Of a stretch of DNA of 64,000 nucleotides, positions 1,199-22,702 are shown piece by piece. Position numbers and translations under genes: made by a program. The stretch covers positions 558,001 to 622,000 of the forward strand of contig NZ_CP011968.1 of assembly GCF_001077535.1 (NCBI RefSeq). The letters run 5' to 3'. Numbering within the stretch: the stretch's first letter is position 1; every line of letters starts with the position of its first letter. The DNA comes from Clostridioides difficile ATCC 9689 = DSM 1296 (GTDB taxonomy: Bacteria; Bacillota; Clostridia; Peptostreptococcales; Peptostreptococcaceae). The notes under the pieces were generated by a model that worked only from the letters and a program-made list of their open reading frames with translations, had not been told where the DNA came from and made no database searches.

Positions 1199-1257
1199 TT
1201 GACATTTAAAACTTACTATTGTAATATTTAAATATTACAATAGTAAGTTTTAAATGT
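1199..1257 (+). promoter_or_regulatory. bla promoter with BlaI-type operator palindrome
   Basis: A strong promoter is visible: TTGACA (1199-1204), 17-base spacer, TAATAT (1222-1227). It is buried in a perfect 56-base palindrome (1202-1257, 28-base arms, no loop) containing ACTTACTATTGTAATAT and its reverse complement. The half-site resembles the sites before the MecA-like PBP (17868, 17987) and blaI (22654), all of the form CTTAC-NNN-TGTAAT or close to it. BlaI/MecI proteins are known to bind TACA/TGTA dyads over such promoters, so this is very likely the BlaI operator for the downstream beta-lactamase. Confidence 0.75.
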
Positions 1258-1296
1258 GGAATCAATTATTATATCACAAATTAAAAGGAGGACAGG

Positions 1297-1418
1297 ATGT
1301 TATTAATAGTTACTTAATTATCTTCGCAATAGGTTTAATCAACATAATTGTACTAGGTGAAGAAAATATAAGAGATACAGCTATTCATTTAGTCTTGTTT
1401 CTTATAAGTAGAACCTAG
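1297..1418 (+). pseudogene. Small membrane ORF before the beta-lactamase (BlaX-like), apparently frameshifted
   Basis: A strong ribosome binding site, AAGGAGG at 1285-1291, precedes ATG 1297, but that frame stops after six codons (MLLIVT). The neighbouring frame continues to TAG 1416-1418 and encodes a hydrophobic segment, NSYLIIFAIGLINIIVLGEE, then a second one. One extra A at about 1305 would join the two into a 39-residue single-pass or hairpin membrane peptide. I recall a small membrane gene, blaX, described as co-transcribed with the C. difficile beta-lactamase; the position fits. Alternatively the second frame is read from ATG 1254 (54 residues), but that codon lies inside the operator palindrome and has no ribosome binding site. 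Frameshift, sequencing error and slippage cannot be separated here. Confidence 0.5.
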
Positions 1419-1442
1419 ATTGGAGTATATTACAAATAATGT

Positions 1443-1460
1443 CTACTATTTTAATAGTAG
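1443..1460 (+). promoter_or_regulatory. Perfect 18-bp palindrome upstream of the beta-lactamase
   Basis: CTACTATTTTAATAGTAG lies 35 bases before the beta-lactamase start. It shares TACTATT with the arms of the upstream operator, so it may be a second, weaker BlaI site or an mRNA hairpin in the leader. This is inference from similarity only. Confidence 0.4.
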
Positions 1461-1494
1461 GTTATAAATTTAAATATGGGAGATGATATAAATT

Positions 1495-2448
1495 ATGAAA
1501 AGAAAAAAGAATTTTATTTGGATAGCTATCTTATTGGTTGGTGTAGTTATGGTAATGTATTATGTAGGGAAAAAACATAACGATATAAATCAAAAAACTG
1601 ATAAGAATTATATAAAATCTGAATTAAATAAGTCTGAATTAAATAAATCCAAAATTGAAAACAATAATAAAAACAAAAAAGAAAAAATTAATATGGTTGA
1701 CTATAGTGATTGTTTTGAAGGTATTAGTGGAGGAGCTATTTTTTATAATACTAAAAATAAAGAATATAATATATATAACAAAGAATTAATTGAAACAAGA
1801 AGGTCACCATGTTCTACTTTTAAAATAGTTTCAACTTTAATTGGTTTAGAAAAAGGGGTAATAAACTCAAAAGAATCAGTTATGGGATATGATGGTACAG
1901 AGTATCCAAATAAAAATTGGAATAAAAATCTTAGTTTAGAAGAGGCATTTAAGGAGTCTTGTGTTTGGTACTACAAAAAATTGATAGATAAAGTTGATGC
2001 TAAATCTGTCCAAAACATTTTAGATGATTTAAAGTATGGGAATTGCGATATTAGCGAATGGGAAGGAGATTTAAAAAATGGAAAGGGACATTTAAATGGA
2101 TTTTGGTTAGAATCTTCATTACAAATATCTCCAAAAGAACAAGTGCAAACAATGGCAAAAATATTTGAGGGAGATACAAACTTTAAAAAAGAGCATATTA
2201 ATATTTTAAGAGATATTATGAAAATAGATGTAAATGATAAAAACATAAATGTATATGGAAAAACTGGAACAGGATTTGATGAAAAAAATAAATGTGTGGA
2301 TGCATGGTTTGTTGGTATGCTAGAGCGTGAAGGTGACACCTATTATTTTGCTATTAAATCAGATGATTCCAATAAAGAAATTACAGGGCCAAAGGTAAAG
2401 GAAATTGCAATTAATATAATTAAGAAATATTATAGTGTAAGGGAATAA
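1495..2448 (+). CDS. blaCDD: Class D beta-lactamase, CDD family
   Basis: A serine beta-lactamase that hydrolyses penicillins and some cephalosporins outside the membrane. The 317-residue protein has a basic N-terminus and one hydrophobic segment (about residues 7-26), a charged Lys/Asn-rich linker to about residue 65, then the catalytic domain. Class D motifs are complete: S107-T-F-K110 (active-site Ser and carboxylated Lys), S155-C-V157, Y181-G-N183 and K256-T-G258. The N-terminal segment may be an uncleaved anchor, since no obvious cleavage site or lipobox is seen. It follows the operator/promoter at 1199-1257 and the small membrane ORF, giving an inducible bla unit. The similarity of its catalytic domain to the C-terminal sensor of BlaR1 (20449-22248) is evident by eye. 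Confidence 0.95.
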   Translation: MKRKKNFIWIAILLVGVVMVMYYVGKKHNDINQKTDKNYIKSELNKSELNKSKIENNNKNKKEKINMVDYSDCFEGISGGAIFYNTKNKEYNIYNKELIETRRSPCSTFKIVSTLIGLEKGVINSKESVMGYDGTEYPNKNWNKNLSLEEAFKESCVWYYKKLIDKVDAKSVQNILDDLKYGNCDISEWEGDLKNGKGHLNGFWLESSLQISPKEQVQTMAKIFEGDTNFKKEHINILRDIMKIDVNDKNINVYGKTGTGFDEKNKCVDAWFVGMLEREGDTYYFAIKSDDSNKEITGPKVKEIAINIIKKYYSVRE

Positions 2449-2612
2449 ACTTAATTTTATTTGTAAATATTATTTACCTATAGTCTGTAATATTTATTAA
2501 ATAATTTTACTAAATTGAGTCTATATAGAGCAAAACTCCTTTAGTACATAAAATACTTGCTATTGATTATTAAATTGAATACCTATAGATTTAAAGTTAA
2601 TACCTTTTAAAG

Positions 2613-2662
2613 ACTATGTAATATATTAAAAGTATAAATAAAATATATTGCATAGTTTTTGT
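2613..2662 (+). terminator. Intrinsic terminator after the beta-lactamase
   Basis: Arms ACTATGTAATATATT (2613-2627) and AATATATTGCATAGT (2642-2656) pair with one G-T wobble, followed by TTTTGTTTT. Confidence 0.65.
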
Positions 2663-2791
2663 TTTATATTATAATTTTAAATAATGTGCAAAAACTAAAC
2701 AATATTTTTAATAGTAATTTATATTTGTATTCATGTCACTATAATGTCATTTTAGGTTGCTAAAATTTAACCATAAAGGAGATGATTGTAT

Positions 2792-3475: not shown

Positions 3476-6132
3476 ATATTCTTCAAGAATACACCTTAGA
3501 CTTTGTACGACGCAATAAACGTAGTAGTATAGCTATAATGTTAGCTATATTACTTACTACAACCATGATGTCTTCTTTGTGTGGACTGTTGTATACCATG
3601 TGGACAGATTTTATAAGACTTTCAATTGAGAAAGAAGGTAACTGGCATGGTGAATTGTTTGACTATACTTATGGAAGTGACTTACCATTAATTGAAAATT
3701 TTTCTTCAGTTGATGATGTAATGGTAAAAGGACAATGGTATGTAGGCAAAATTAATGATGAGAAAAGAGATTATATAATTTATAGAAATGCTACATCAGA
3801 GTATTGGGATTCTATGCCAGAAAAGGATACTATAATAGAGGGTCGTCGACCAAATAATGCTAATGAAATTGCATTATCAAAACAATATTTTGAGAATAAT
3901 CCAAGTGTAAAAATTGGTGATAAAATTACTCTCCCAATAGGAGATAGAATCCTAAATGGAAAGCCTCTTGAACCCATAGCCCCAAAATCGAAAGGGGAAA
4001 GTTTTAAAAAAATTTCAGAGACTACATTGACAATAGTAGGAAAGGTAGATGTTTCTACTTCATCAGTAATACCTGCATATACAGCTCTTGGATATCTTGA
4101 TAAAACAAGTATAAAACCTAATGATAGTATAACTGTGTACTTGCGATTTAAAAATATAAGAGACACGTATAAGGAACTTCCAAAACTTGCTAAATCATTG
4201 GGGTGGAAGACTAATGAATATGGAAAATACAATCTTAAATACAATAGTAATTATCTTTTAAAGATGTTAGTCTTTTCACCAGAACAGAAAGCATCTATGA
4301 GTAGTATATCAAAATTTTCAACTCCTATTATGTATCTTACAATAGCAATTTTTACAGTAGCCGTGTTTGTAATGGTGATTTACAACGCGTTTTCACTGTC
4401 TGCAAATGCTAGACTTACTCAGTTAGGGATATTATCTAGTGTTGGTGCATCACCAAAACAAATTAAAAGGTCTGTAGTGTTTGAAGGATTTTTACTGACA
4501 ATTATACCATTACCAATAGGTTTATTTTTAGGATGGTTATTGTGTAATAGGCTTATAGTTTATGTTAATTCAGTTAATTATCATACTGATGTTCCAGAAG
4601 TGGTATTTACTTATGGTATTCCTGCTTTTCTGCCAGCAGTTTTACTTACAATAGTAACAGTCTGGATTTCTGCACTTATACCAGCACGAAAAGTATCAAA
4701 GATATCTCCTATAGAAGCAATACGACAAGGAGATAGTGTTAAAATCAAAAAGTCGCATAAATATTCATTAGGAAAGATATTTGGAATAGAAGGAGAACTT
4801 GCATCAAACGCACTACGTGCTCGTAAAAAATCTTATCGTACTGCAACAATATCTTTAACATTATCTTTTTTATTACTTACATGTTTTTTGCATATAATTG
4901 CAAATCAAGAAGGAGCAAAAGCTGTTTATGGAAGTGATAATTATAAGGACCAAAGAGATATAGCAGTTTATTTGGAAAATAGTGAACCTGTAGAGTCTGC
5001 TTTCATTGAAAAATTAGATAATACAGAAGGTGTAAAAAGTTCACTATATTATCAAAAAATATCTGCTTCCACTTGGCTGACTGAAAAAGATGCATCAAAA
5101 GAACTTGCGAAAAATGGAGGATTTAAAAGTATAGTTTCATCTAAAAAATACTCTCCTATAGAACGTGATGGCAAGTTTCGTATAATTTCAAATATAATTG
5201 GGCTTGATGATAAGAGTTTTACAGAATATTGTAGGCAAATTTCTGTAGACCCAAAGTTATTTTATGATACAAAAAATCCAACCTCAATTGTATATAATAA
5301 GGAGGAAGATATTAATCGTAGTACACGTAGAAATAAAGTATATATAGATTATTTAAATCTTTCAATAGGAGATAACATTAAATTAAATGAAAAAGTATAT
5401 GACGAAGATAAAGGGGATTATACTTACAACATGAAAGTGGGAGCTATTACAAGCACACTTCCTAAAATAGTAGATACTAGTTCAAAATATACATTAATGC
5501 AAATAGTGCCAATGTCTATGGTGCAGGAAATATCTAAAAATTATGATGAAGTAAGTAGGTTACGTTCAAATAGGCTGATAGGAGTATTTAAAGTAAATAA
5601 TCGTGAGGACATTCCTAGAGTAAGAGAAAAATTAGAGTCCATTTATAATAAAGACTATGGTTCAGGAGATTATAGTATTGAGGATGTTTTAGAAAGTGAA
5701 AAACAAAAGGCTAGTGGAATAAAGACCATGAATTTAATAGTAGGCTTTATTACAGGTTTATTGGCTATGATTGGATTATCAAATGTACTTGCTACAGTGT
5801 CAGGAAATATTAGAAGTAGACGACAAGAGTTTGCTATGTTGCGTTCTGTTGGATTATCTCCAGAAGGCATAAAAAAGATGCTTATTTTGGAAGGTTTATT
5901 CTTAGGAATTACACCATTACTACTTAGTATTCCTGTGCAAATAGGAATAGTGTATGCTTTTCTACGTATAAATGAAATATATTTTATAGAGTATTTACCA
6001 TTTGCACCTATATCTACAATAATAGGTTTTACTATATTGATACTTTTTATTGTAATAGCATCATATATGACAGGATACAAGCAGTTGAAGAATGAAAATA
6101 TAGTAGAATCTATAAAAAATGAAACAATATAA
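3472..6132 (+). CDS. FtsX-type ABC transporter permease, 886 aa
   Basis: Membrane partner of the preceding ATPase. A signal-anchor-like segment (about residues 17-40) is followed by a ~240-residue extracytoplasmic region, a first FtsX domain of three membrane segments (about 280-410, with the internal QLGILSSVGASPKQIK coupling segment), one more membrane segment (about 455-475), a second long extracytoplasmic region and a second FtsX domain (about 750-875, EFAMLRSVGLSPEGIKK). The duplicated FtsX arrangement and length are typical of the large MacB/YknZ- and BceB-related permeases of Firmicutes. A paralogue of similar build lies at 31870-34338. It ends convergent with the sensor kinase, with a shared terminator between. 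Confidence 0.9.
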   Translation: MNILQEYTLDFVRRNKRSSIAIMLAILLTTTMMSSLCGLLYTMWTDFIRLSIEKEGNWHGELFDYTYGSDLPLIENFSSVDDVMVKGQWYVGKINDEKRDYIIYRNATSEYWDSMPEKDTIIEGRRPNNANEIALSKQYFENNPSVKIGDKITLPIGDRILNGKPLEPIAPKSKGESFKKISETTLTIVGKVDVSTSSVIPAYTALGYLDKTSIKPNDSITVYLRFKNIRDTYKELPKLAKSLGWKTNEYGKYNLKYNSNYLLKMLVFSPEQKASMSSISKFSTPIMYLTIAIFTVAVFVMVIYNAFSLSANARLTQLGILSSVGASPKQIKRSVVFEGFLLTIIPLPIGLFLGWLLCNRLIVYVNSVNYHTDVPEVVFTYGIPAFLPAVLLTIVTVWISALIPARKVSKISPIEAIRQGDSVKIKKSHKYSLGKIFGIEGELASNALRARKKSYRTATISLTLSFLLLTCFLHIIANQEGAKAVYGSDNYKDQRDIAVYLENSEPVESAFIEKLDNTEGVKSSLYYQKISASTWLTEKDASKELAKNGGFKSIVSSKKYSPIERDGKFRIISNIIGLDDKSFTEYCRQISVDPKLFYDTKNPTSIVYNKEEDINRSTRRNKVYIDYLNLSIGDNIKLNEKVYDEDKGDYTYNMKVGAITSTLPKIVDTSSKYTLMQIVPMSMVQEISKNYDEVSRLRSNRLIGVFKVNNREDIPRVREKLESIYNKDYGSGDYSIEDVLESEKQKASGIKTMNLIVGFITGLLAMIGLSNVLATVSGNIRSRRQEFAMLRSVGLSPEGIKKMLILEGLFLGITPLLLSIPVQIGIVYAFLRINEIYFIEYLPFAPISTIIGFTILILFIVIASYMTGYKQLKNENIVESIKNETI

Positions 6133-6276
6133 ACAAAATCTATTTGAACTTATTTAAAGGTTTCGATTTAAGACTACTTACAAGTATAGGGATAGTTAAT
6201 TTGTTTGTTTAATAAAACCTTAAATGTAAATAGAAGTATATTACTAAAACAATAGATAACATAGAATATAGATATA

Positions 6277-6309
6277 GCTGGATTATAGGTATTTTACCTA
6301 TAATCCAGC
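6277..6309. terminator. Bidirectional terminator between convergent genes
   Basis: A perfect 15-base stem, GCTGGATTATAGGTA paired with its complement, with a TTT loop. It separates the ABC permease (+) from the sensor kinase (-) and would serve both. Confidence 0.8.
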
Positions 6310-6312
6310 ATT

Positions 6313-7494
6313 TTATGTGTAAAATTTAATTATGAATTTTGCACCACCATTATGGCAATTTTCTGCATGTAGAGTACCATTTTGACGTTCTATAATAGAC
6401 TTTGATAGAGCAAGCCCTATACCAATACTGTCCTTACTAGCATTTTTACCACGATAAAATCTATTAAAAATATATGGAAGTTCTTCCTGAGCAAACCCCT
6501 TACCATTATCTTCTATGATAATCTCAACATATAGAGGATTTTGACTATAATAAGCAACTATATATCCACCATCTTCTATATGCTCACTACAATTTTTAAG
6601 AATATTTAAAAGAGCTTCTAAAGTCCAATTAATATCGATTTCAAATTCTACCGAAGGAGAAGCCTCGATAGTAAATGTCTGATGTTTTTCTCTTAAAGAA
6701 CCTTCTATAGGCTCAATTGCATAAGTAAGAAGAGAATGTACATCTATAAGTTTGCTTTCAAATATTAAAGTACTTGCATCCAATTTTGATAATGTAAGTA
6801 AAGATGAAACTAGTCTCTCAAGTCTTGAGATTTGATTTGTAAGCCTGTTAATATAATCTATTTCTTCATCTGGACAATTTTCTGAAAGTAATTGTGCCAT
6901 AAGTGACATAGAAGTAATTGGAGTCTTAAGTTGATGAGCAATATCTGCAAGATTATCTGAAAGAGTTTGTCTTTCTTTTAAAGCAAATTCTTTTGAACAA
7001 CGAAGTTCCCCAACTGTTTTATATATCTCATCTTCAAGGTGAGAAAATTCATCTTCACATCGTAAAAGTACAGACTCTTTTCCTAAATTCACTTCTTCTA
7101 AGTATTGAGTAAGATTGTTTATTCTACTCAGTTTTTGCTTATTTGTTCTATGTTTGATTATATATACAACTGTAGCCATTGTTGAAATTATACCAAACGA
7201 TATCACTAGAAAATAAAAAAAGTTTTTACTCCAAAGTGTACTTTTAGAATATCCATGTTTTGATAAAATTTCATTTCCTGTTTTAAAATCCTTATCACTA
7301 GAATTTTTCAGTGATTTTAGTATACTTTCTGTAGACTTAGGATTGTACTCATATGATGCACCAAGAGCCTTAGACAGTACATTGTATTCATTAAAAGAAG
7401 TTATAGTTGTTAGAATTACACTCAATAAAAAAGTTACAATTAAGCAGAATATTATAAAAACAACTGTACTGTTGATATTTCTTGGAGTTTTCAC
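6313..7494 (-). CDS. Sensor histidine kinase (OmpR-type partner)
   Basis: A 393-residue membrane kinase: two membrane segments (about residues 11-33 and 91-113) bracket a ~55-residue external loop. A HisKA domain with phospho-acceptor His187 in DIAHQLKTPIT follows, then a HATPase domain with N-box LLNILKNCSEH and G-boxes EDNGKGF and GIGLALSK. It starts at GTG 7494-7492, sharing one base with the TAG stop of the response regulator, and GGAGG stands seven bases upstream. The pair probably senses the stress handled by the convergent ABC transporter, as Bce-type pairs do; that link is inferred from position. Confidence 0.92.
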   Translation of the reverse strand: MKTPRNINSTVVFIIFCLIVTFLLSVILTTITSFNEYNVLSKALGASYEYNPKSTESILKSLKNSSDKDFKTGNEILSKHGYSKSTLWSKNFFYFLVISFGIISTMATVVYIIKHRTNKQKLSRINNLTQYLEEVNLGKESVLLRCEDEFSHLEDEIYKTVGELRCSKEFALKERQTLSDNLADIAHQLKTPITSMSLMAQLLSENCPDEEIDYINRLTNQISRLERLVSSLLTLSKLDASTLIFESKLIDVHSLLTYAIEPIEGSLREKHQTFTIEASPSVEFEIDINWTLEALLNILKNCSEHIEDGGYIVAYYSQNPLYVEIIIEDNGKGFAQEELPYIFNRFYRGKNASKDSIGIGLALSKSIIERQNGTLHAENCHNGGAKFIIKFYT

Positions 7495-8156
7495 TAGTTG
7501 TCCTCCATTCTATATCCTATGCCTCTTAATGTTTTTATACAAGGTGGATTTTTTAATTTTTCTCTAAGACGTTTTATTGTAACAGTAAGAGTGTTATCAT
7601 TTACGAAATTACCATCTACATCCCAGAGCATTTCTAGTAACTTTGTACGAGTCATAGCTCTATTTTTATTTTCCATAAGACTTAGAAGAAGTTTATATTC
7701 TCCTGCTGTCAAAGGTACTTCAACATTATCTAAATATGCTTTGACTTCAACCTTATTCAAGCTTATATTTTCACATGTAATAGTATTGTTAGTATTTGAA
7801 TGAGTTCTTCTAAGAACTGCATTAATTCTGGATTGAAGTACTGAGAGCAAAAACGGTTTAACCACATAGTCATCTGCACCCATATCTAATCCACGTATAA
7901 TGTCTTTTTCATCATCACGGACTGTCAAAAATATCACTGGAGTATCTTCTATACTTTTAACATATTGGCAAAACTCGTATCCAATACCATCAGGTAGATT
8001 TAAATCAAGCAGAATTAAATCAATAGTTTTATCAAAATTTTTTTTAGCTTCAGCAATCGTATTATAACAACATACAGTGTGATTTTTCTTTTCAAGGGAA
8101 GTTTTTATTCCAAATGTAATTGTATCATCATCTTCTAAAAGAAGTATTTTAGCCAT
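7494..8156 (-). CDS. OmpR/PhoB-family response regulator
   Basis: Receiver domain with the acidic cluster EDDD (residues 8-11), phospho-acceptor Asp51 in LLDLNLPDG and conserved Lys100 in DDYVVKPF, followed by a winged-helix DNA-binding domain ending GYRMEDN. First gene of a two-gene operon with the kinase (one-base overlap). Its likely targets are the ABC genes at 2792-6132 and its own promoter; no repeat operator was recognised in front of either. Confidence 0.93.
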   Translation of the reverse strand: MAKILLLEDDDTITFGIKTSLEKKNHTVCCYNTIAEAKKNFDKTIDLILLDLNLPDGIGYEFCQYVKSIEDTPVIFLTVRDDEKDIIRGLDMGADDYVVKPFLLSVLQSRINAVLRRTHSNTNNTITCENISLNKVEVKAYLDNVEVPLTAGEYKLLLSLMENKNRAMTRTKLLEMLWDVDGNFVNDNTLTVTIKRLREKLKNPPCIKTLRGIGYRMEDN

Positions 8157-8293
8157 TTACTTTTAATCCTTTCAGTAATTTAGTTATTCCATTAACTAAG
8201 TTATTAGTTTTATGTTTAATATTTTTTATATTAGAGATAGAAAAAATTATCATTTAAATTTAAGTATATAAACTTTAATTTATAAACTTAGGT

Positions 8294-8932
8294 TTATGCT
8301 TTAATTGAATCTATTAAAAGAGCAAGAGTTGTTTCAATAAATTTTTCCTCATCTATATTAAAGTTGTTCAGGTATGATTTTCCTATTACAGATAGTAAAT
8401 TAAAAAATCCTGTAAGTGTAAATATTGATGAATACATAAGAGTAGGTATTTCAATATCATGCCTAATACTTCTATCATTTTTTCCAATTTCAAACATTCC
8501 TTGTATTTCATCAAACATAAATTTATTAAAAGAAAAAAACTTTTCTTTAAACAGCATATCAGTATCCGATTTTTCAGAGTTTACAATACCAATCATTCCC
8601 ATAAGGCATAATAGAGAAGGTTCTACAGAGTAAAATTTATGAAAAGCAAAGTATGAAAGTTTTATTTTTTCAAACCCTGTTTTGCCTTTTGCACTTTCTA
8701 TTTTAACATTATCCCAAAGTCTTTTATATCCTCTTAAGACAACAGCAAAGAATAAATCTTCTTTACATGAAAAGTACTTGTATATGGTGCGTTTAGTATA
8801 TTCAACTTCTTTTGCTAATTCATTCATAGTTGTATTATCAAATCCATTAAGACAAAATAATTTTTCTGCCTTATCAATAATCTCATTTTCTCTTTGTATT
8901 TTTTCTTTATCTCTTTTTGATAATTCTGACAT
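8294..8932 (-). CDS. TetR-family transcriptional regulator
   Basis: A 212-residue regulator with an N-terminal TetR helix-turn-helix (about residues 16-60: AEKLFCLNGFDNTTMNELAK then the recognition part YTKRTIYKYFSCKEDLF) and a variable C-terminal ligand domain with no recognisable pocket. The start is supported by AAAGGAA ten bases upstream. It is divergent from the metallo-beta-lactamase-fold gene at 9111, and the interval holds two matching operators, so autoregulation and repression of the hydrolase gene are likely. Confidence 0.88.
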   Translation of the reverse strand: MSELSKRDKEKIQRENEIIDKAEKLFCLNGFDNTTMNELAKEVEYTKRTIYKYFSCKEDLFFAVVLRGYKRLWDNVKIESAKGKTGFEKIKLSYFAFHKFYSVEPSLLCLMGMIGIVNSEKSDTDMLFKEKFFSFNKFMFDEIQGMFEIGKNDRSIRHDIEIPTLMYSSIFTLTGFFNLLSVIGKSYLNNFNIDEEKFIETTLALLIDSIKA

Positions 8933-8959
8933 ATAAATTATTCCTTTCTATTGATAAAA

Positions 8960-9014
8960 AAGTATACTGATGGTATACTTATGTAAATATAATACTTGTA
9001 TACCTATAGTATAC
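8960..9014. promoter_or_regulatory. Two TetR operators in a divergent promoter region
   Basis: Two dyads share the same geometry, GTATAC-N5-GTATAC: 8960-8980 (extended to AAGTATAC/GTATACTT) and 8998-9014. Their centres are 36 bases apart. They sit between the divergent tetR and hydrolase genes and are best explained as binding sites for that TetR protein. Confidence 0.7.
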
Positions 9015-9110
9015 TTTAATAAAAAATAAAATTAATATCAAGTATTATAACTATTTATAACTTTATTAATTAATTATATAGGTAAAATACCAAATAAGGG
9101 GAATTTATTT

Positions 9111-9716
9111 ATGAAGATAAAAGAAAATGTATTAATGTTAGATAGTACTCGTGGCTCAAATTGTTTTATTGTGTTTGATAAAGAAATTATTCTTATAGAC
9201 ACAGGTCTTCCTTTTATGGGGAAAAATATAATTAAAGAATTAAAAACACTTGGTATTAAACTTACAGATATTAAGCATATTTTATTAACTCATCATGATG
9301 TTGACCATATATCTAATATTAAATTATTGAAAGAAAAAACAGGAGCAAAAGTATGGGCTCATGTAGAGGATATACCTTTTATTATAGGAGAGAAGGATAG
9401 ACCTGGGTTTAAGAAGTTTATTGGAAAGGCAATTTCCAGAAGGCTCATTAAGGATGTTGAACCTTATGGAGAGAATATGCAGATTGGGAATATAAAAATT
9501 ATCCATACTCCTGGTCATACTCCAGGGCATGTCTGCATGATTTTTGAAGATGTATTATTTGCAGGTGATTTAGTCAAAAATAAGAATGGAAATATAGTTC
9601 CTTATCCTAATCCATGGAATTGGGATTATAAAAAGATGATGAAATCTATAAGAGAATTGGATAATTTAAAATATGAATGGATATGTATGTCTCATGGAAC
9701 TCCTTGTATTAAATAA
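9111..9716 (+). CDS. Metallo-beta-lactamase-fold hydrolase
   Basis: A 201-residue MBL-fold protein in the glyoxalase II/lactonase size class, not a true beta-lactamase. Metal-binding elements: THHDVDH (about residue 62), HTPGHTPGH, the bridging Asp in FAGDLV and the terminal His in MSHGTP. In the first motif the canonical H-x-H-x-D-H reads H-H-D-V-D-H, so the second His is replaced by Asp. Similar substitutions occur in YflN-like members, so activity is not excluded. GGGGAATTT precedes the ATG. It is probably controlled by the divergent TetR regulator; the substrate is unknown. Confidence 0.85.
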   Translation: MKIKENVLMLDSTRGSNCFIVFDKEIILIDTGLPFMGKNIIKELKTLGIKLTDIKHILLTHHDVDHISNIKLLKEKTGAKVWAHVEDIPFIIGEKDRPGFKKFIGKAISRRLIKDVEPYGENMQIGNIKIIHTPGHTPGHVCMIFEDVLFAGDLVKNKNGNIVPYPNPWNWDYKKMMKSIRELDNLKYEWICMSHGTPCIK

Positions 9717-9755
9717 TAAAAATTAACATGGATTAATAGAGGCGTAGTTGCTTGT

Positions 9756-9905
9756 ATGTATGATAATAATTTACAGCTTCTTTTTAATATATCATGTATA
9801 TTTGTAGCTGTAAGCATATTTATAACAATACTTACAATTTTGTATTTTAACATCTATAATAATAGTTTTAGCTTTGTTAACTATGAAATTTACTTAAAGA
9901 AGTAA
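9756..9905 (+). CDS. Small putative membrane protein, 49 aa
   Basis: A short ORF beginning MYDNNLQLLF with one long hydrophobic segment (about residues 9-31) and a basic end, EIYLKK. AGAGG at 9738-9742 is about 13 bases before the ATG, so initiation is not well supported. It follows the MBL-fold gene by 39 bases and could be its operon partner. No family is recognised; it may be spurious. Confidence 0.35.
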   Translation: MYDNNLQLLFNISCIFVAVSIFITILTILYFNIYNNSFSFVNYEIYLKK

Positions 9906-9989
9906 ATATTCAAGTAGTAGTAATTATTAAATAAGATAAAAAATAAATGGCAGATGAATTAAAGTAATTTCTACCATGGAAAATACTTT

Positions 9990-10115
9990 TGAGTTAGAAA
10001 AAACTCTATTTTAGAGTATGAAGAGATGAAGCTTCCGAAGAAAGCAATATCTAAAGTACATGTTCGAAAGGATAAGTACTTTTTGGTGCCTGCTTTTAGC
10101 AGGTTATTTTTATTT
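9990..10115 (+). ncRNA. Candidate structured leader or small RNA ending in an intrinsic terminator
   Basis: Upstream of the sugar cluster, a stretch forms nested helices: AAAGTAC (10054-10060 region) pairs with GTACTTT about 25 bases on, GCTT with AAGC around CCGAAGA, and outer GAT with ATC. It is followed by a terminator, CCTGC-TTTTA-GCAGG (10089-10103), and TTATTTTTATTTT. The layout is that of an attenuator or riboswitch for the RpiR-led genes starting 104 bases later. I compared it by memory with common riboswitch classes and recognised none; it could equally be an independent small RNA. Confidence 0.4.
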
Positions 10116-10219
10116 TAATAAAAATAAAATCAAATGATTATTTTATCCTTATTATTTAAAACTCTTCCCTAGAAAAAGCAACTAATGTATATTAAAATAA
10201 TATTTAGGGAGTGGAAAAA

Positions 10220-14328: not shown

Positions 14329-14332
14329 AAAA

Positions 14333-16402: not shown

Positions 16403-16417
16403 ATATTGTATAAATTT

Positions 16418-17077
16418 TTAGTGTAGCCATATCTTAGTATTAAAGCACATTTTTTGTATGTAATCAATAAAACAACTTACATGGTATCCATCAGTAGTTG
16501 CGTGATGCACTGTTATAGAAAGAGGAAGAAGTATTTTTTCATCTTTTTGATAGTATTTACCTGCTTCAATTGTAGGGAAAAAATAATTTTCAAGACCATG
16601 ATTATGTACAGTAAAACTCTTAAAGCTAATCCATGGAAGGCAGGAAACAGTATAGCAGTTTCTTGGCGGATTTGGTTTTGCTAGAAAACCATGATTTTTT
16701 CCATATTCTTTAACATCAGCTAAATAATTTTCATAGAATATTGAGAAATTTTCATCATATTCTGTCCATATTGATGAGAAAGTCTTATTATCATCATGAA
16801 AAATCGCATAAAGTGGCGTTAACGTGTTCCAATATCCGAGTTCATCTTCATCATATGCGATTTTTAGTTCTCTATATCGATTTAAGCAAGTAGTTATTGT
16901 ATATAAATACGCTGGATAAAATTTAATATTTCTTTTTTTCGTTTCCTTAAGCAAATTAGTAATATCTATTTCTATAGTCAAATTAAACCCTACATTTGTC
17001 ATTTTTGAAAAGTAGTAAAAATGTGTATATCGTTCCCAGTTTTGTAAATTAATTTTATGGAATTTTTGTTTATTCAT
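16418..17077 (-). CDS. Chloramphenicol acetyltransferase-like protein (type A CAT fold)
   Basis: A 219-residue protein with the type A CAT fold from end to end (NWERYTHFYYF near the N-terminus, LPWISFKSF in the centre). The catalytic His lies in VHHATTDGYH; classical enzymes have HHAVCDGFH, so the CD pair is replaced by TD while the Asp-Gly-Tyr/Phe-His core is kept. It transfers acetyl from acetyl-CoA to a hydroxylated acceptor. Whether chloramphenicol is the true substrate is uncertain, because chromosomal CAT-like proteins often show weak activity. It overlaps the upstream TetR gene by eight bases and is co-regulated with it. Confidence 0.85.
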   Translation of the reverse strand: MNKQKFHKINLQNWERYTHFYYFSKMTNVGFNLTIEIDITNLLKETKKRNIKFYPAYLYTITTCLNRYRELKIAYDEDELGYWNTLTPLYAIFHDDNKTFSSIWTEYDENFSIFYENYLADVKEYGKNHGFLAKPNPPRNCYTVSCLPWISFKSFTVHNHGLENYFFPTIEAGKYYQKDEKILLPLSITVHHATTDGYHVSCFIDYIQKMCFNTKIWLH

Positions 17078-17648
17078 ATAAAATCACCATGTCCTTTATA
17101 ATATTTATTTGATTATCAATGTCTTTATTTGTAAGTTTCAAAATGGAAGCAGATGTTTTCATGCTATCAAATAAGAACATTATGTGTATTGCAACTGATT
17201 TAGAATCACATTTTTTAAATTCACTTTTAGATTGTCCATAATCGATTAAATTTGAAAGCATTGTGATAGCTGAACTGTATCTTTTATTCATATAATCACG
17301 TTGGTCTTTTTCTACAAAAGCAAATTCGTGTATTGCAAAATCAAATCCACAATATTTGCCATTTATGTCAGCCTTTTGTTGTTGGAAAAAATATTCTAGC
17401 ATATGCTTAGCTGATATATTTTCCTTGATACCTTTATCCAACAAATTTTGAGAGTAGTATTTATGAGTGTTTAATATACTGATAAAAATTTCTTTTGGTG
17501 AATTAAAGTGTCTATATAGGCCACCACGGCTTAAATTACATGCTTCACATATATCTTTCATTGTCACATTACTATATCCTTTTTCAGAAAATAGCATTAT
17601 TGATGTATCAATGATAAATTGTTTAGTTTGTTCTCCTTTTGTTGGCAT
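17070..17648 (-). CDS. TetR-family regulator of the CAT-like gene
   Basis: A 192-residue repressor: TetR helix-turn-helix in residues 8-55 (MLFSEKGYSNVTMKDICEACNLSRGGLYRHF) and a C-terminal domain resembling the TetR_C group with a conserved Phe-rich helix. The start at 17648 (MPTKGEQ) is chosen because AAGGAGG lies nine bases upstream; an in-frame codon at 17684 lies inside the operator. First gene of the operon with the CAT-like gene. It probably binds the two dyads at 17669-17710 and so represses its own operon. Confidence 0.88.
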   Translation of the reverse strand: MPTKGEQTKQFIIDTSIMLFSEKGYSNVTMKDICEACNLSRGGLYRHFNSPKEIFISILNTHKYYSQNLLDKGIKENISAKHMLEYFFQQQKADINGKYCGFDFAIHEFAFVEKDQRDYMNKRYSSAITMLSNLIDYGQSKSEFKKCDSKSVAIHIMFLFDSMKTSASILKLTNKDIDNQINIIKDMVILYE

Positions 17649-17668
17649 ATGTTTTAACCTCCTTTTTA

Positions 17669-17718
17669 ACGACATAAGTGTCACTTTTAATTATGAGACA
17701 CTTGTGTCGTTTTGTCAA
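17669..17718 (-). promoter_or_regulatory. Promoter and twin operators of the tetR-CAT operon
   Basis: On the minus strand: -35 TTGACA (17718-17713), 17-base spacer, -10 CATAAT (17695-17690). Two 12-base dyads, GACATAAGTGTC and GACACTTGTGTC (the latter a perfect palindrome), have centres 28 bases apart and lie respectively downstream of the -10 and inside the spacer. Together they also form a 14-base inverted repeat (17669-17682/17697-17710, one mismatch). This is the expected layout for repression by the adjacent TetR protein. Confidence 0.8.
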
Positions 17719-17854
17719 GTTAAAGTTATATACTATAAAATAATTACAATAGAATAAGGTTAATTTATAAAATAGTTGAAGAATACAAAAGAATATAATG
17801 GAACTGATTTATTTTTAAGTTGATGTAAAAAATAATTAAATAATGATAATATTA

Positions 17855-18004
17855 TTGACTTTTAAAACTTACATGTGTAATATATAAGTTACTATCAATT
17901 ATACTGCTTACATATTTTTATGAGATACTTAAAAACATAATAAAAACATAGATTAGTTATGTCTATAAGAGTATTTTAACCTTAAAGCTTACGTATGTAA
18001 TATA
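17855..18004 (+). promoter_or_regulatory. BlaI-type promoter/operators of the MecA-like PBP
   Basis: TTGACT (17855-17860), 17-base spacer and TAATAT (17878-17883) reproduce the architecture of the bla promoter at 1199, and the sequence ACTTACATGTGTAATAT overlaps the -10 in the same position. A second copy, GCTTACGTATGTAATATA, lies at 17987-18004, just before the ribosome binding site. Both match the site in front of blaI (22654). BlaI repression of this PBP is therefore a strong inference. Confidence 0.75.
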
Positions 18005-18026
18005 TTAAATGATAAAGGTGGTTTAT

Positions 18027-20096
18027 ATGAGAAAAAATAAAAAAACAAGAAAAATGATAATTTTTGGTTTTCTAATGTGTCTGCTTATAGTTATTATTGT
18101 TTTTTTAGCAAAATTCATACTAGATGGACTCAATAAAAACAAACCAGATGAAGTGTTTAAGCAGTATATGTCTTTTGCAAATAAAAAACAATATGAGAAA
18201 ATGTATGATTTATTAGATGAAAAGAGCAAGTCTGAAAATAAAAAAGAAGATTTTGTTTTAAGAAATAAAAAAATCTATGAAGGAATTGATGCACACGATA
18301 TAAGTATTAAGATTAATGATATTAAAAAAAATAAAAATAATGATAAAGTAATAAACTATGATTCTAAGATGGATACTTTAGCAGGTGAAATTTCATTTTC
18401 AAATGAAGTACTATTAACTAGAGATAGACAGAAAAATTATAAAATAAAATGGCAGTCAAACGTCATATTTCCAGAACTTGAAGAAGATAATACTGTAAGG
18501 GTATCAAAGCTGAAAGGTAAGAGAGGACGTATCCTGGATAGGAACGGTGTAATGATTGCTGGTCAAGGTCTTGCATCTATGATAGGATTAGTTCCTGGAA
18601 AAATGAGTGATAATATAGAAGACTTAAAAAAATTATCTACTTTATTGAATGTATCAGTTGAACAAATTGAAAAGAAATTAAATGCATCTTGGGTAAAAGA
18701 AAATTCAATGGTACCTATAAAAACTATTGAAAAAATAAAAGAAAATACAGATGGTACTGTAAAAGAAGAAGATAAGGAACTACAAGAGTCACTTCTTAGT
18801 ATTCCTGGAGTTAAAATATCTAATACAGAGGTTAGAGTATATCCATTTGGTGAAAAAACCGGTCATTTAACTGGTTATGTTCAAAATGTAAATGCAGATA
18901 TACTAAAGGAAAAAGAGGGTAAGAGGTACAACGATAATAGTATAATTGGTAAGATTGGTTTAGAAAATTTACTGGAAGATAGAATACGTGGTATTGATGG
19001 ATATGAGATTATAATAGCTGATAGATATGGTGACAAGAAAGAAACTTTAGTAACTGAGCCAAAGGTAGATGGAGAAGATGTAAAGCTAACTATAGATTCA
19101 AAACTACAGAGTAAACTATATGACCAAATGAAAAATGATAAAGGTTGTGCAGTAGTTATGAATCCTAAAACAGGAGAGGTTTTATCACTTGTAAGTAGTC
19201 CGTCGTACAATCCAAATGAGTTTATATTGGGAATGTCAGAAGATAGATGGAATGAACTCAATAAAAATGAAAATAAACCAATGTACAATAGATTTAAAGC
19301 ACGATTATGTCCTGGGTCTTCTTTTAAACCAGTTACTGCTGGTATTGGTATAACAACAGGAAAGATTAATCCAAATGAAAACTTTGGACACAGCAGTCTA
19401 AGTTGGCAAAAAGATTCTAGTTGGGGAAGTTATAAGGTAACCACGTTAAAAGATTATGGAAATACTGCAAATATGAAAAATGCTTTGATTTATTCTGACA
19501 ATATTTATTTTGCTAAGGCAGCCTTAAAAATAGGTGAAGATGTATTAGCAAAAGAGTTGCTGAAGCTTGGATTTGATGAAAGTATGCCATTTGAATTTGG
19601 ATTGTCTTCTTCAAAATTTGGCACTGACAATAAATTTGAGACTGAAATACAATTAGCAGATACTGGCTATGGACAAGGTAAGCTTCTTGTAAATCCAGTA
19701 CATACGGCATCAATATATTCAGCTTTTGTAAATGATGGAGACATGATAAAACCCCATCTTGAATTTAAAAAGGCTGAATTTTGGAAGAAAGGTGTGTTTT
19801 CTAAAGAGGCTGTAAAAATTATTCGTGATGACTTACTTCAAGTTGTTGAAAGCCCTGATGGTACAGGTCATAGTGCTATGATTAAAGGAATTAGCATTGC
19901 TGGGAAAACTGGTACAGCAGAAATTAAAGCATCAAAAGATGATGTTACAGGGACAGAACTTGGATGGTTTAATGCTTTTACTGTAGATGAAAATAGTGAT
20001 AAACAATATATAGTAATTGCTATGATTGAAGATGTAAAGAGTCGTGGGGGAAGTCATTATGTTATTCCTATTGTTAAATCAGTGTTTGAAGATTAA
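18027..20096 (+). CDS. MecA-like class B penicillin-binding protein
   Basis: A 689-residue transpeptidase that cross-links peptidoglycan. Order: cytoplasmic basic tail, membrane anchor (about residues 9-33), an NTF2-like MecA_N domain (about 38-150, DEVFKQYMSFANKKQYEKMYDLL), a PBP dimerisation domain (about 160-345, KGKRGRILDRNG, GLENLLEDRIRG) and the transpeptidase with S431-S-F-K434, S490-D-N492 and K627-T-G629. The MecA_N domain is typical of beta-lactam-insensitive PBPs such as MecA/PBP2a and PBP5fm. The ATG at 18027 is chosen over 18009 because AAGGTGG lies five bases upstream. Preceded by two BlaI-type operators and convergent with blaR1, so it looks inducible by beta-lactams. Confidence 0.9.
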   Translation: MRKNKKTRKMIIFGFLMCLLIVIIVFLAKFILDGLNKNKPDEVFKQYMSFANKKQYEKMYDLLDEKSKSENKKEDFVLRNKKIYEGIDAHDISIKINDIKKNKNNDKVINYDSKMDTLAGEISFSNEVLLTRDRQKNYKIKWQSNVIFPELEEDNTVRVSKLKGKRGRILDRNGVMIAGQGLASMIGLVPGKMSDNIEDLKKLSTLLNVSVEQIEKKLNASWVKENSMVPIKTIEKIKENTDGTVKEEDKELQESLLSIPGVKISNTEVRVYPFGEKTGHLTGYVQNVNADILKEKEGKRYNDNSIIGKIGLENLLEDRIRGIDGYEIIIADRYGDKKETLVTEPKVDGEDVKLTIDSKLQSKLYDQMKNDKGCAVVMNPKTGEVLSLVSSPSYNPNEFILGMSEDRWNELNKNENKPMYNRFKARLCPGSSFKPVTAGIGITTGKINPNENFGHSSLSWQKDSSWGSYKVTTLKDYGNTANMKNALIYSDNIYFAKAALKIGEDVLAKELLKLGFDESMPFEFGLSSSKFGTDNKFETEIQLADTGYGQGKLLVNPVHTASIYSAFVNDGDMIKPHLEFKKAEFWKKGVFSKEAVKIIRDDLLQVVESPDGTGHSAMIKGISIAGKTGTAEIKASKDDVTGTELGWFNAFTVDENSDKQYIVIAMIEDVKSRGGSHYVIPIVKSVFED

Positions 20097-20257: not shown

Positions 20258-20258
20258 A

Positions 20259-20423: not shown

Positions 20424-20448
20424 TTTTTTAGAATGTACAGTAAATATA

Positions 20449-22248
20449 TTAAGGATTATAGATTTTTTTGTCATTTAATATGGATAATGTTATCTTAGAT
20501 GCTGAACTACCATTAGAATAATCTTTGCTTTGAATATTTGTAGCAAAGAAATAAGTATTTTCATTTTTTTCCACATAACCTATAAACCAACCATTTACAT
20601 CTTTTCCATTTATATTAGCAGTGCCTGTTTTACCAAAAAGTGATACCCCATCCTTTTTTGATATTAACAATGAATCTTTTACTGTTTCTATATTTTTATC
20701 TTCAAATTTAAACTTATTTGTATAAAAACTTTCAAGTAATTCTACCTGTTCAATAGGTGATATTTTTAATGAAGATTCTAGCCAAAAGTTTGAGATACCA
20801 CCTGAAACATCATAATTGCCATATCCAATTTGCCTAAGATAAGTTTGTATGTTTTTTAGCCCTGTTTTTTTATCTAGAGTCTGAAAGTACCAGTTTACGG
20901 AGTTTTCCATAGCAGAAAATAAGTCTTGGTCTTCATTCCAAGAACTATTAGAATGATGCTTTCCATCCCAAGGGATATGTGAATTATTTCTTGTTATTAT
21001 CCCATTTTCCAATCCCAATAAGGCACTATAAATCTTATAAGTAGAATTTGGAGAAATTCTTGTTTTACTTTTTTCTTTATTGTAAATATGATATTGCTTG
21101 GATTTTAAATCATACATAACAAAACTTCCATCAAAACCTTTAAAATACTGACTTAAGTCCTCGTACACAGTTTGTTCATTTGTAGGTCTATATTTTTCGT
21201 TGATATCTGCCATAATAGATAGTTTGGGAATATTTCCAAATACAATTAAAGCTATCAATGTAAAAATTAAAATGCTTTTGAATTTTAACGTATTTGATTC
21301 ATTATGAAAATCCATTATCTTCAATAGTCGCTTTTTTATTTGTTTTTTTGACCCACCAATATCTGATGTAAGTGTAAGATTTGATGGTCTTGAAATATTA
21401 TCCACAAAGTTTATTAGAGTTTGTCCATATTCTATATGACTATCTTTATCAAGCTTTTTTAAAACTGAAATATCACATGCAATTTCACGGTCTATACGCA
21501 TTTCTTTAAATGCATACCATACAAGAGGATTAAACCAATATAATATTTGAAGGAAGCACATTATATAATTTATCAGTATATCTTTATTTTTAAAGTGTTG
21601 TAATTCATGAAGTAAGATATATTTTATATCTTTTAAAGATAATTTAGATATAGACTTATCTGGTAATATAATGTGTGGTTTAAAGTATCCAAATGTAATA
21701 GGTGTATTTATAATAGGTGATTTGCATAGTATAAAATCCTTATTTATACCAATATCTTTTTTACACTTTTCAAATATAAATACTATCTCCTCATCTCTTA
21801 AAATTTGTATTGATTTTTTCATATTTTTTATTTTAATGTTGCAATGAATAGTAATAGCTATCATGATTAAAATTCCAATTATCCATGATATTAGTAATAA
21901 AATATTTAAACTATCAAAATTAACTTGGTTTAGGGATACTGAAAAATCGTTTAATGCATTTGAGTTATTAATTATAGAATTTGGACTATTTTTTATCATA
22001 GAAGTCCTATTAGTACTGCTTCCAAGTTGATTAAAAGTATATAAATAGTTAAATACATTTCCAAGATTAATATATTTAAGAGGGACAAATGGAATTATTA
22101 ACATTATAAGCAATATAAATCCAATATTGTATTGGTACTTTGCAGAAATATGTTTTTTAAATACTTTTTTGGCAAGTAAAATTACAGCAATTAATATTGA
22201 TAAGGTTAATGTACTGAGTAAAAATCGTATAAAGAATGGGGCATACAT
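20449..22248 (-). CDS. blaR1: BlaR1-type beta-lactam sensor/transducer (M56 metallopeptidase)
   Basis: A 599-residue membrane sensor. Four membrane segments (about residues 5-25, 38-56, 116-136 and 310-330) frame a cytoplasmic M56 zinc protease loop with H214-E-L-Q-H218. The extracellular C-terminal domain resembles a class D beta-lactamase: S402-T-Y-K405 (acylated by drug), SVN, YGN and K540-T-G542. On acylation, such proteins lead to loss of BlaI repression. It starts two bases after blaI and is co-transcribed. Its sensor domain closely resembles the CDD beta-lactamase at 1495. Likely targets are blaCDD, the MecA-like PBP and its own operon. Confidence 0.95.
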   Translation of the reverse strand: MYAPFFIRFLLSTLTLSILIAVILLAKKVFKKHISAKYQYNIGFILLIMLIIPFVPLKYINLGNVFNYLYTFNQLGSSTNRTSMIKNSPNSIINNSNALNDFSVSLNQVNFDSLNILLLISWIIGILIMIAITIHCNIKIKNMKKSIQILRDEEIVFIFEKCKKDIGINKDFILCKSPIINTPITFGYFKPHIILPDKSISKLSLKDIKYILLHELQHFKNKDILINYIMCFLQILYWFNPLVWYAFKEMRIDREIACDISVLKKLDKDSHIEYGQTLINFVDNISRPSNLTLTSDIGGSKKQIKKRLLKIMDFHNESNTLKFKSILIFTLIALIVFGNIPKLSIMADINEKYRPTNEQTVYEDLSQYFKGFDGSFVMYDLKSKQYHIYNKEKSKTRISPNSTYKIYSALLGLENGIITRNNSHIPWDGKHHSNSSWNEDQDLFSAMENSVNWYFQTLDKKTGLKNIQTYLRQIGYGNYDVSGGISNFWLESSLKISPIEQVELLESFYTNKFKFEDKNIETVKDSLLISKKDGVSLFGKTGTANINGKDVNGWFIGYVEKNENTYFFATNIQSKDYSNGSSASKITLSILNDKKIYNP

Positions 22249-22250
22249 AT

Positions 22251-22637
22251 TTATTTATCCCCCTTAGTCGTCCTTTTATTTAAGATTTCTCTCAGTTCCT
22301 CAATATCATCTTCAGATAGTTTATCATTTTCTAAAAAGTTTAGTACCATAGAATTAAGAGTACCATTATAAAAACGATTTAAAAAAGAACTACTTTCTTT
22401 AGCTACGTATTCTTCTTCTTTAACAAGTGGAGTATAAACGAATACTCTGCTATTTTTTTCATATGTTAAAGCTCCTTTTTTAACTAATCTCAATAACATT
22501 GTTTGAATTGTTTTAGGACTCCATGTACTTGTTTCTACCAACTTTTCAATTACTTCAGTAGTGCTGATAGGAGCATATTTCCAAATAATTTTCATAACTT
22601 GATATTCTGCTTCTGAAATATGTGGTAACTTTTTCAT
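22251..22637 (-). CDS. blaI: BlaI/MecI-family repressor
   Basis: A 128-residue dimeric winged-helix repressor: helix-turn-helix in residues 5-75 (ISEAEYQVMKIIWKYAPISTTEVIEKL, STWSPKTIQTMLLRLVKKGAL) and a C-terminal dimerisation part (about 80-125) where BlaR1-dependent cleavage would occur. First gene of the blaI-blaR1 operon, with AAGGAGG 5' of its ATG. Similar operators precede this gene, the MecA-like PBP and the beta-lactamase, so it probably controls all three. Confidence 0.94.
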   Translation of the reverse strand: MKKLPHISEAEYQVMKIIWKYAPISTTEVIEKLVETSTWSPKTIQTMLLRLVKKGALTYEKNSRVFVYTPLVKEEEYVAKESSSFLNRFYNGTLNSMVLNFLENDKLSEDDIEELREILNKRTTKGDK

Positions 22638-22653
22638 ACTATACCTCCTTCTA

Positions 22654-22702
22654 CTTACATTTGTAATACATAAAGTATATTATCATTAATTTAGTTTGTC
22701 AA
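22654..22702 (-). promoter_or_regulatory. blaI-blaR1 promoter and operator
   Basis: Minus strand: TTGACA (22702-22697), 17-base spacer, TATACT (22679-22674), then the operator CTTACATTTGTAATACA (22654-22670 on the plus strand) between the -10 and the ribosome binding site. The operator matches those of the PBP and beta-lactamase, indicating autoregulation by BlaI. Confidence 0.8.

What the first reader, a model, noticed from the sequence alone, without database searches (positions are those of the whole stretch)
1199..22702. A mec-like BlaI regulon: beta-lactamase, MecA-like PBP and sensor sharing one operator
Three promoters (1199, 17855 and 22702 minus strand) share TTGAC(A/T)-17-TAATAT/TATACT spacing and a CTTAC-NNN-TGTAAT dyad. 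They drive a class D beta-lactamase, a PBP with a MecA_N domain, and blaI-blaR1. In staphylococci the equivalent parts (bla and mec) come from mobile elements; here a chromosomal anaerobe appears to join both resistance mechanisms under one sensor. The PBP part is the less familiar piece.
Basis: partly seen in the sequence, partly recalled or inferred. Interest (0 to 1): 0.8.

Follow-up and report, generated by a model that had tools for sequence, protein, structure and literature searches.

The report
Inducible mecA-like PBP regulon in Clostridioides
In this Clostridioides chromosome one penicillin-sensing switch (BlaR1/BlaI) appears to control both a penicillin-destroying enzyme and a spare cell-wall enzyme related to the MRSA one, and the same pairing of switch and spare enzyme recurs in other gut Clostridia.

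Summary
The window is a Clostridioides chromosome carrying blaCDD (class D beta-lactamase), blaI-blaR1, and a class B PBP that matches the known, variably present C. difficile gene pbp5. Six exact CTTAC-N3-TGTAAT sites occur in 64 kb against 0.08 expected. Five lie at the three named promoters; the sixth is inside a kinase gene, probably by chance. The blaCDD and pbp5 promoters match one 29-base -35/operator/-10 pattern exactly.

What this study adds is conservation. PBP5 occurs in 6 of 8 Clostridioides species genomes, and all six keep both operators. One of the two without pbp5 keeps a 155-bp remnant at the syntenic place, pointing to loss. Among 80 related clostridial PBPs, 34 have a BlaI-type dyad upstream; permuted palindromes average 2. 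Of 15 with a blaI ORF in the flank, 11 also have the dyad at blaI; in the other 4 blaI follows the PBP on the same strand.

Best reading: BlaI represses pbp5, blaCDD and itself; BlaR1 relieves this when a beta-lactam acylates it. Binding, pbp5 induction and drug affinity were not tested. PBP5 resembles PBP2a and enterococcal PBP4/5 but meets neither curated cut-off.

The parts
1199..1227 (+). promoter of the blaCDD transcript, TTGACA-17-TAATAT
1202..1257 (.). perfect 56-bp palindrome holding two BlaI-type dyads (1212-1225 + and 1234-1247 -)
   Evidence: both exact in 6 of 7 Clostridioides CDD loci, one exact in the seventh
1495..2448 (+). blaCDD, class D beta-lactamase, 317 aa, STFK/SCV/KTG motifs
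   Evidence: NCBIfam NF033866 673.6 bits, cut-off 600
17855..17883 (+). promoter of pbp5, TTGACT-17-TAATAT
17868..17881 (+). BlaI-type operator 1 of pbp5, overlapping the -10 box
   Evidence: exact in 6 of 6
17988..18001 (+). BlaI-type operator 2 of pbp5, in the leader, ending 26 bp before the probable ATG
   Evidence: 6 of 6, one of them with 1 mismatch
18009..20096 (+). pbp5, class B PBP (MecA_N, PBP_dimer, transpeptidase); probable start 18027 (689 aa); SSFK/SDN/KTG
20449..22248 (-). blaR1, M56 metalloprotease (HELQH) plus penicillin sensor (STYK, SVN, KTG)
   Evidence: NCBIfam NF000326 799.5 bits, cut-off 400
22251..22637 (-). blaI, repressor, 128 aa, with VLNF at 98-101
   Evidence: Pfam Penicillinase_R; alignment to solved BlaI (first 80 residues) and MecI
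22654..22667 (+). BlaI-type operator of blaI-blaR1, between -10 and start codon
   Evidence: present in 7 of 8 Clostridioides genomes
22674..22702 (-). promoter of blaI-blaR1, TTGACA-17-TATACT

Best explanation
It is a chromosomal BlaR1/BlaI regulon with three transcription units: blaCDD, pbp5 and blaI-blaR1. Without drug, BlaI dimers sit on CTTACNNNTGTAAT dyads. At blaCDD and pbp5 the dyad fills the spacer and overlaps the -10 box, so RNA polymerase is excluded; a second dyad (22 bp away at blaCDD, 120 bp away at pbp5) would tighten repression or act as a roadblock in the leader. At blaI-blaR1 a single dyad just past the -10 would give looser autorepression, so some sensor is always made. When a beta-lactam acylates the BlaR1 sensor domain, its M56 protease domain is activated and BlaI is inactivated, probably by cleavage at the conserved N-F bond. 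All three units are then expressed: CDD destroys drug, and PBP5, if it is poorly acylated like PBP2a and enterococcal PBP4/5, keeps cross-linking the wall. Shown here: the genes, motifs, dyads, their positions and their conservation. Inferred from known BlaR1/BlaI systems (recalled): binding, sensing, cleavage, induction. Inferred from relatives only (recalled): low affinity of PBP5.
For: Exact sites 6 against 0.08 expected. Both dyads at 6 of 6 Clostridioides pbp5 genes; 23 of 28 operator columns invariant against 98 of 194 other columns, which include gap and coding columns (Fisher p 0.002). CDD promoter site in 7 of 7, blaI promoter site in 7 of 8 genomes; the eighth, G007, has no CDD or pbp5 match and keeps blaI without start codon, promoter or adjacent blaR1. 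Of 80 PBP relatives 34 have TTACANNTGTAA at 1 mismatch or fewer upstream, 19 exactly; 29 permuted palindromes average 2.07 and 0.03, the highest being 9 and 1; 16 of 17 loci with a BlaI or BlaR1 match in the flank have it, 18 of 63 without (Fisher p 1e-6). In 26 of the 34 the dyad overlaps a TTGAC promoter. Of 15 loci with a BlaI ORF, 11 have the dyad near blaI too, against a control mean of 0.14. BlaI aligns with MecI from residue 4 to 122, VLNF included. CDD activity is inducible by beta-lactams in two strains (PMC6299217, passages).
Against: No binding or pbp5 expression data. Near matches genome-wide are at background. Counts over the 80 relatives are not independent: for example L094, L096, L098 and L103 are near-copies from Blautia. 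46 of 80 show no dyad at 1 mismatch or fewer, and whole clades lack it. On a tree of 92 PBPs operator state needs 12 changes, at least 10 by starred branches (shuffled mean 29.8), so the link was lost or gained repeatedly. Promoter-like sequences also occur in 18 of 46 loci without a dyad. One distant PBP (L027) scores a dyad with the symmetric pattern, so some of the 34 are likely false positives. The second BlaI paralogue (33% identical) could in principle bind, though the region fetched around it has no dyad at 1 mismatch or fewer (L044). C. difficile strains 630 and R20291 lack pbp5, so its share in resistance is open.
Confidence: 0.78

Rival explanations
1. The operators at pbp5 are real, but pbp5 is a stress-induced wall-repair transpeptidase with ordinary drug affinity rather than a low-affinity resistance enzyme.
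For: Carriage of pbp5 alone does not give imipenem resistance: all 25 RT017 isolates carried it and 3 were susceptible (PMC5875251, whole text). PBP5 misses both curated resistance-PBP cut-offs.
Against: Best-scoring solved structures by sequence are a 'Penicillin-binding protein 3' (7bn9), PBP2a and enterococcal PBP5/PBP4; low affinity of the last two is recalled. Drug-sensing control of an enzyme that the drug would inactivate makes little sense.
Confidence: 0.25
2. pbp5 is a recently acquired mobile gene that brought its own mec-type promoter, and the link to the resident blaI is incidental.
For: Isidro et al. describe pbp5 as 'encoded in a mobile element', next to an ermB transposon-like element in the imipenem-resistant isolates (PMC5875251). 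Plasmids hold distant relatives: 55 records, all under 60% identity.
Against: Orthologues at 82-88% identity in 5 further Clostridioides genomes, 12.5-13.1 kb from CDD in each (15.6 kb in the window); a 155-bp remnant at 92% in the syntenic gap of G002. No close copy in viral contigs, plasmids or phages, but these tools may leave out records very near the window's genome. Dingle et al. also favour gradual loss from a constant location (PMC10128037, passages).
Confidence: 0.08
3. The dyads are bound by another repressor, such as the second BlaI paralogue or an unrelated dimeric regulator.
For: The genome holds a second BlaI-like gene, 33% identical.
Against: The dyad sits at the blaI promoter of the same locus, as expected of an autorepressor; the region around the paralogue (L044) has no dyad at 1 mismatch or fewer; the dyad tracks blaI/blaR1 linkage in other Clostridia.
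Confidence: 0.05
4. The pbp5 operators are chance or relic sites in AT-rich DNA.
For: The shorter symmetric dyad is near background genome-wide, 17 against 12.
Against: Exact longer sites are 6 against 0.08, and both pbp5 sites are kept in six species while flanking bases change.
Confidence: 0.03

Closest known systems
Staphylococcal mec complex (mecA-mecR1-mecI) with bla cross-control
   Same: Sensor protease, BlaI/MecI-type repressor, PBP with MecA_N domain, dyad at the promoter, PBP and beta-lactamase under one type of repressor (staphylococcal side recalled; the abstract start of PMC3102608 in the listing says bla may control mecA)
   Different: Chromosomal and found in most of the genus here; class D beta-lactamase instead of class A; PBP gene convergent with blaR1-blaI instead of divergent (recalled for mec); 446 bits to the PBP2a model whose cut-off is 750
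Staphylococcal and Bacillus licheniformis bla operons (recalled)
   Same: Same sensor, repressor and kind of dyad; autorepressed blaI
   Different: Control here extends to a PBP, and the enzyme is class D
C. difficile blaCDD and BlaRI (Toth 2018; Sandhu 2019)
   Same: Same kind of genes; CDD activity is inducible by beta-lactams (PMC6299217, passages)
   Different: Toth does not name BlaI or BlaR (0 occurrences); Sandhu was not read; strain 630 lacks pbp5 (PMC10128037)
C. difficile pbp5 (Isidro 2018; Dingle 2023)
   Same: Same length, 2088 nt; variable presence (M68 RS02615)
   Different: Isidro's main text does not mention BlaI; Dingle's has 0 occurrences of BlaI or BlaR
Enterococcal PBP4/PBP5 and Listeria PBP3
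   Same: Best curated model is PBP4(5), 588 bits, cut-off 700; best solved chain is 7bn9, 'Penicillin-binding protein 3' (that it is the Listeria protein is recalled)
   Different: Not known to me to be under BlaR1/BlaI control

Membership tests
BlaR1/BlaI regulon | BlaI/MecI-family repressor | tested here: met
   Pfam Penicillinase_R 134 bits, cut-off 22.6; alignment to BlaI and MecI structures. The narrow NCBIfam models for named BlaI and MecI proteins are below cut-off, best 134.7 of 180
BlaR1/BlaI regulon | BlaR1 with M56 protease and penicillin sensor | tested here: met
   blaR1_generic 799.5 bits, cut-off 400; HELQH, STYK, KTG
BlaR1/BlaI regulon | shared operator dyad at each target promoter | tested here: met
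   conservation
BlaR1/BlaI regulon | BlaI binds the dyads; genes induced by beta-lactams | not testable with these tools
   CDD induction is in print for two strains; nothing seen for pbp5
PBP2a (MecA) family | MecA_N, dimerisation and transpeptidase domains | tested here: met
PBP2a (MecA) family | curated PBP2a model cut-off (NF000237, 750 bits) | tested here: not met
   445.6 bits
PBP2a (MecA) family | low affinity for beta-lactams | not testable with these tools
   needs acylation kinetics
Enterococcal PBP4(5) | curated model cut-off (NF051842, 700 bits) | tested here: not met
   587.7 bits
CDD class D beta-lactamase | curated model cut-off (NF033866, 600 bits) | tested here: met
   673.6 bits
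C. difficile PBP5 | identity to the M68 gene | tested here: inconclusive
   equal length and class, but the M68 sequence was not compared

The most novel reading that the evidence does not exclude
A BlaR1/BlaI switch over a mecA-like PBP is an old and common chromosomal trait of gut Clostridia, not a staphylococcal peculiarity. Clostridioides joined it with a class D beta-lactamase, at least one other lineage holds all four genes as one cassette, and C. difficile lineages such as 017, 078 and 001 keep an inducible target-bypass layer that reference strains 630 and R20291 lack.
Probability: 0.5. Interest if true: 0.7.

Novelty: new variant of a known kind. Interest (0 to 1): 0.55.

Why it matters
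Beta-lactam resistance of C. [quoted passage not shown] (abstract) found that CDD accounts for only part of it. If PBP5 is induced by the same sensor, the lineages that carry it have a second, drug-inducible layer that work on strains 630 and R20291 cannot see, because both lack pbp5. The wider finding, PBP genes under BlaI-type dyads in other Clostridia, offers a chromosomal parallel or reservoir for the mec logic.

Tried and rejected
Close mobile copies of pbp5 were sought in viral contigs (3 stretches matched a pattern, none a relative), plasmids (55 records at E 1e-50 or better, all under 60% identity) and phages (33 records at 1e-20, all under 60%; the best, 47.7%, is an 8.4-kb unannotated 'Bacteriophage sp.' record, perhaps bacterial DNA). 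All three answers warn that records very near the window's genome may be left out, so C. difficile's own elements are not ruled out. Extra regulon members: of 17 exact TTACANNTGTAA sites in the genome, 15 were looked at; 11 lie in or overlap the end of ORFs of 90 codons or more, 4 do not: pbp5, blaI, L155 (before an amidotransferase-like ORF) and L162 (between a helix-turn-helix ORF and another), not pursued. The 36253 and 325930 sites were set aside as coding-sequence matches. Papers: 9 searches. difficile + pbp5 + blaI gave one paper, a review on Enterococcus and S. aureus; BlaI + penicillin-binding protein + Clostridia + operator gave none; difficile + pbp5 + beta-lactam gave 59, of which 25 were listed; BlaR1 + BlaI + Lachnospiraceae + penicillin-binding protein, three of four, gave 123, of which 15 were listed, none with Lachnospiraceae in the text. 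The library lacks most subscription papers, so this is weak evidence of novelty. Read: PMC5875251 whole main text; passages only of PMC10128037, PMC6291485, PMC12713402, PMC9210968, PMC8307371, PMC12539705, PMC11983580; abstract and passages of PMC6299217; Sandhu 2019 not held. No structure was predicted.

Two (L070, L071) are Clostridioides records whose contig lengths equal those of G005 and G001, and L131 has that of G277, so 78 lie outside the genus and 32 of these 78 have the dyad. Upstream DNA was short in L108 (154 bases) and L134 (136). BlaI/BlaR1 were sought only in the fetched flanks, up to 6 kb, and some flanks are cut by contig ends, so the number of linked loci is a lower bound. 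The tree held the 80, the window protein and 13 of the other loci; one search is the same less two rows, with the same placement.
Full report
What is there. The PBP at 18009-20096 has MecA_N, PBP_dimer and transpeptidase domains, the motifs SSFK, SDN and KTG, and the same 2088-nt length as the M68 gene that Isidro et al. called pbp5 in ribotype 017 (PMC5875251) and that Dingle et al. report in ST3(001), ST11(078) and ST37(017)/ST81(369) but not in 630 or R20291 (PMC10128037, passages). The M68 sequence itself was not compared. BlaR1 keeps HELQH in its protease part and STYK, SVN and KTG in its sensor. BlaI aligns with solved BlaI and MecI, including, for MecI, the VLNF segment in which, from memory, BlaI and MecI are cleaved.

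Operators. CTTACNNNTGTAAT occurs six times exactly in the window against 0.08 expected: twice in a perfect 56-bp palindrome at blaCDD, twice at pbp5, once at blaI, and once inside a kinase gene. The blaCDD and pbp5 promoters read TTGAC(A/T)TTTAAAACTTACNNNTGTAATAT, the dyad filling the spacer and running into the -10 box. The blaI dyad lies between the -10 and the start codon. The second pbp5 dyad lies in the leader, ending 26 bp before the probable ATG at 18027. Promoter scans alone are not telling, and with one mismatch, or in the fully symmetric form, genome-wide counts are near background. The case rests on exact sites, their position and conservation.

Conservation in the genus. Of 8 Clostridioides genomes, the window's own included (one per GTDB species), 6 hold PBP5 at 82-100% identity, 8 hold this BlaI at 88-100% and 7 hold CDD at 69-100%. 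All 6 PBP5 genes have both dyads, one of the twelve sites with one mismatch; 23 of 28 operator columns are invariant against 98 of 194 others. All 7 CDD genes have at least one exact TTACNNNTGTAA site, 6 of 7 the pair; 7 of 8 genomes have the blaI site. The exception, G007, has no CDD or PBP5 match at the limits used, and its blaI frame lacks start codon and promoter; next to it only 35 bp match blaR1. G002, which has CDD and blaI-blaR1 but no pbp5, keeps 155 bp at 92% identity to window 19797-19951, in the 3' part of pbp5, between the tetR gene and blaR1, where pbp5 stands in the window. So pbp5 was probably ancestral at this site in at least part of the genus and is being lost, in line with Dingle et al. 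and against recent acquisition.

Beyond the genus. From 330 bp upstream to 30 bp into the match, 34 of 80 have TTACANNTGTAA at one mismatch or fewer and 19 exactly; 29 palindromes made by permuting the arm average 2.07 and 0.03, the highest 9 and 1. Of 17 loci with a BlaI or BlaR1 match in the fetched flank, 16 have the dyad; the seventeenth, L134, has only 136 bp of upstream DNA. Of the other 63, 18 have it. In 26 of the 34 the dyad overlaps a TTGAC promoter, for example TTGACATTGAAATCTTACAGATGTAATAT in L131; promoter-like sequences also occur in 18 of the 46 loci without a dyad. Fifteen loci hold a BlaI ORF: in 11 the dyad is also near the start of blaI; in the other 4 (L097, L108, L127, L134) blaI lies downstream of the PBP on the same strand, so one promoter could serve both. 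Four of the 11 are near-copies from Blautia. In the tree of 92 proteins PBP5 falls in a set of 45 (SH-aLRT 96, quick search, no bootstrap) of which 32 have the dyad, against 7 of 47 outside; operator state needs 12 changes, shuffled mean 29.8. In 17 loci of PBPs from its taxonomic family that are 36-41% identical, none has the asymmetric site at one mismatch or fewer upstream; one of them, L027, has a symmetric one.

A four-gene cassette. In a MAG titled Eubacterium sp. (L140) the PBP ORF (5959-8184) overlaps the start of a CDD-like class D ORF (8117-9253; 206.6 bits to blaCDD, below its cut-off of 600; STFK and KTG present), followed by convergent blaR1 (9276-11069) and blaI (11108-11476), with two one-mismatch dyads upstream of the PBP and one near blaI. 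It is the only one of the 80 in which a CDD match that is neither BlaR1 nor a piece at a locus end was found. It is the clearest case of both resistance mechanisms under one sensor. Being a MAG, assembly error cannot be excluded, and beta-lactamase activity is not shown.

How it most likely works, and what is shown. Sequence and conservation support direct control of pbp5, blaCDD and blaI by BlaI. Sensing by BlaR1 acylation, protease activation and BlaI cleavage follow from the known family (recalled). Inducible CDD activity is in print for ATCC 43255 and 630 delta-erm (PMC6299217, passages). That PBP5 is a low-affinity bypass enzyme is inference from relatives. Isidro et al. report that all 25 RT017 isolates carry pbp5 while 3 are imipenem-susceptible, so pbp5 alone does not give that resistance; they suggest it facilitates it.

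Novelty. The parts are known. The link of pbp5 to BlaI, its depth in the genus, the remnant in G002 and the recurrence in other Clostridia were not found in the searches listed, in a library without most subscription papers, and Sandhu et al. 2019 could not be read. I rate it a new variant of a known kind.

Noticed in passing
about 1296-1494, and CDD upstream regions of G001-G006: Between promoter and blaCDD five of seven Clostridioides genomes (G001, G003-G006) have a membrane-peptide frame open to the end of the stretch printed (candidate blaX, name recalled); in the window this frame is short and interrupted, and in G002 other sequence stands there.
   Followed up: partly
1199-1494: The blaCDD -35 box starts 296 bp before its ATG. 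Toth 2018 tested the 'own promoters' of cdd1 and cdd2 with 182 and 177 bp of upstream DNA; if their strains share this layout, the BlaI-controlled promoter was left out, which could explain the poor expression they saw.
   Followed up: partly
L058:1044-1198: 155-bp pbp5 remnant in a Clostridioides genome without pbp5, at the syntenic place.
   Followed up: yes
L067:8485-8910: In G007 blaI survives without start codon or promoter, joined to the end of another gene, with 35 bp matching blaR1 beside it.
   Followed up: partly
L140:5959-11476: MAG with PBP, CDD-like class D ORF, blaR1 and blaI in about 5.5 kb.
   Followed up: partly
L043-L045, upstream of the second BlaI paralogue: The promoter regions show a dyad one base wider than the bla dyad (CACATGTTGTA, TACATATTGTA, CACATGTTGTA): perhaps a distinct operator for the second BlaI system.
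   Followed up: no
16418-17740: A CatA-like acetyltransferase gene and a tetR-family gene lie divergent to pbp5; the region upstream of tetR holds an inverted repeat, GACACTTGTGTC.
   Followed up: no
L102:8000-10527, L126:8012-12598: In these two loci genes for lipoprotein-like proteins follow the PBP on the same strand and may belong to the regulon.
   Followed up: no
G000:C1:1301446, L155: An exact symmetric dyad outside long ORFs, 216 bp before an amidotransferase-like ORF; possible extra BlaI target or chance.
   Followed up: no
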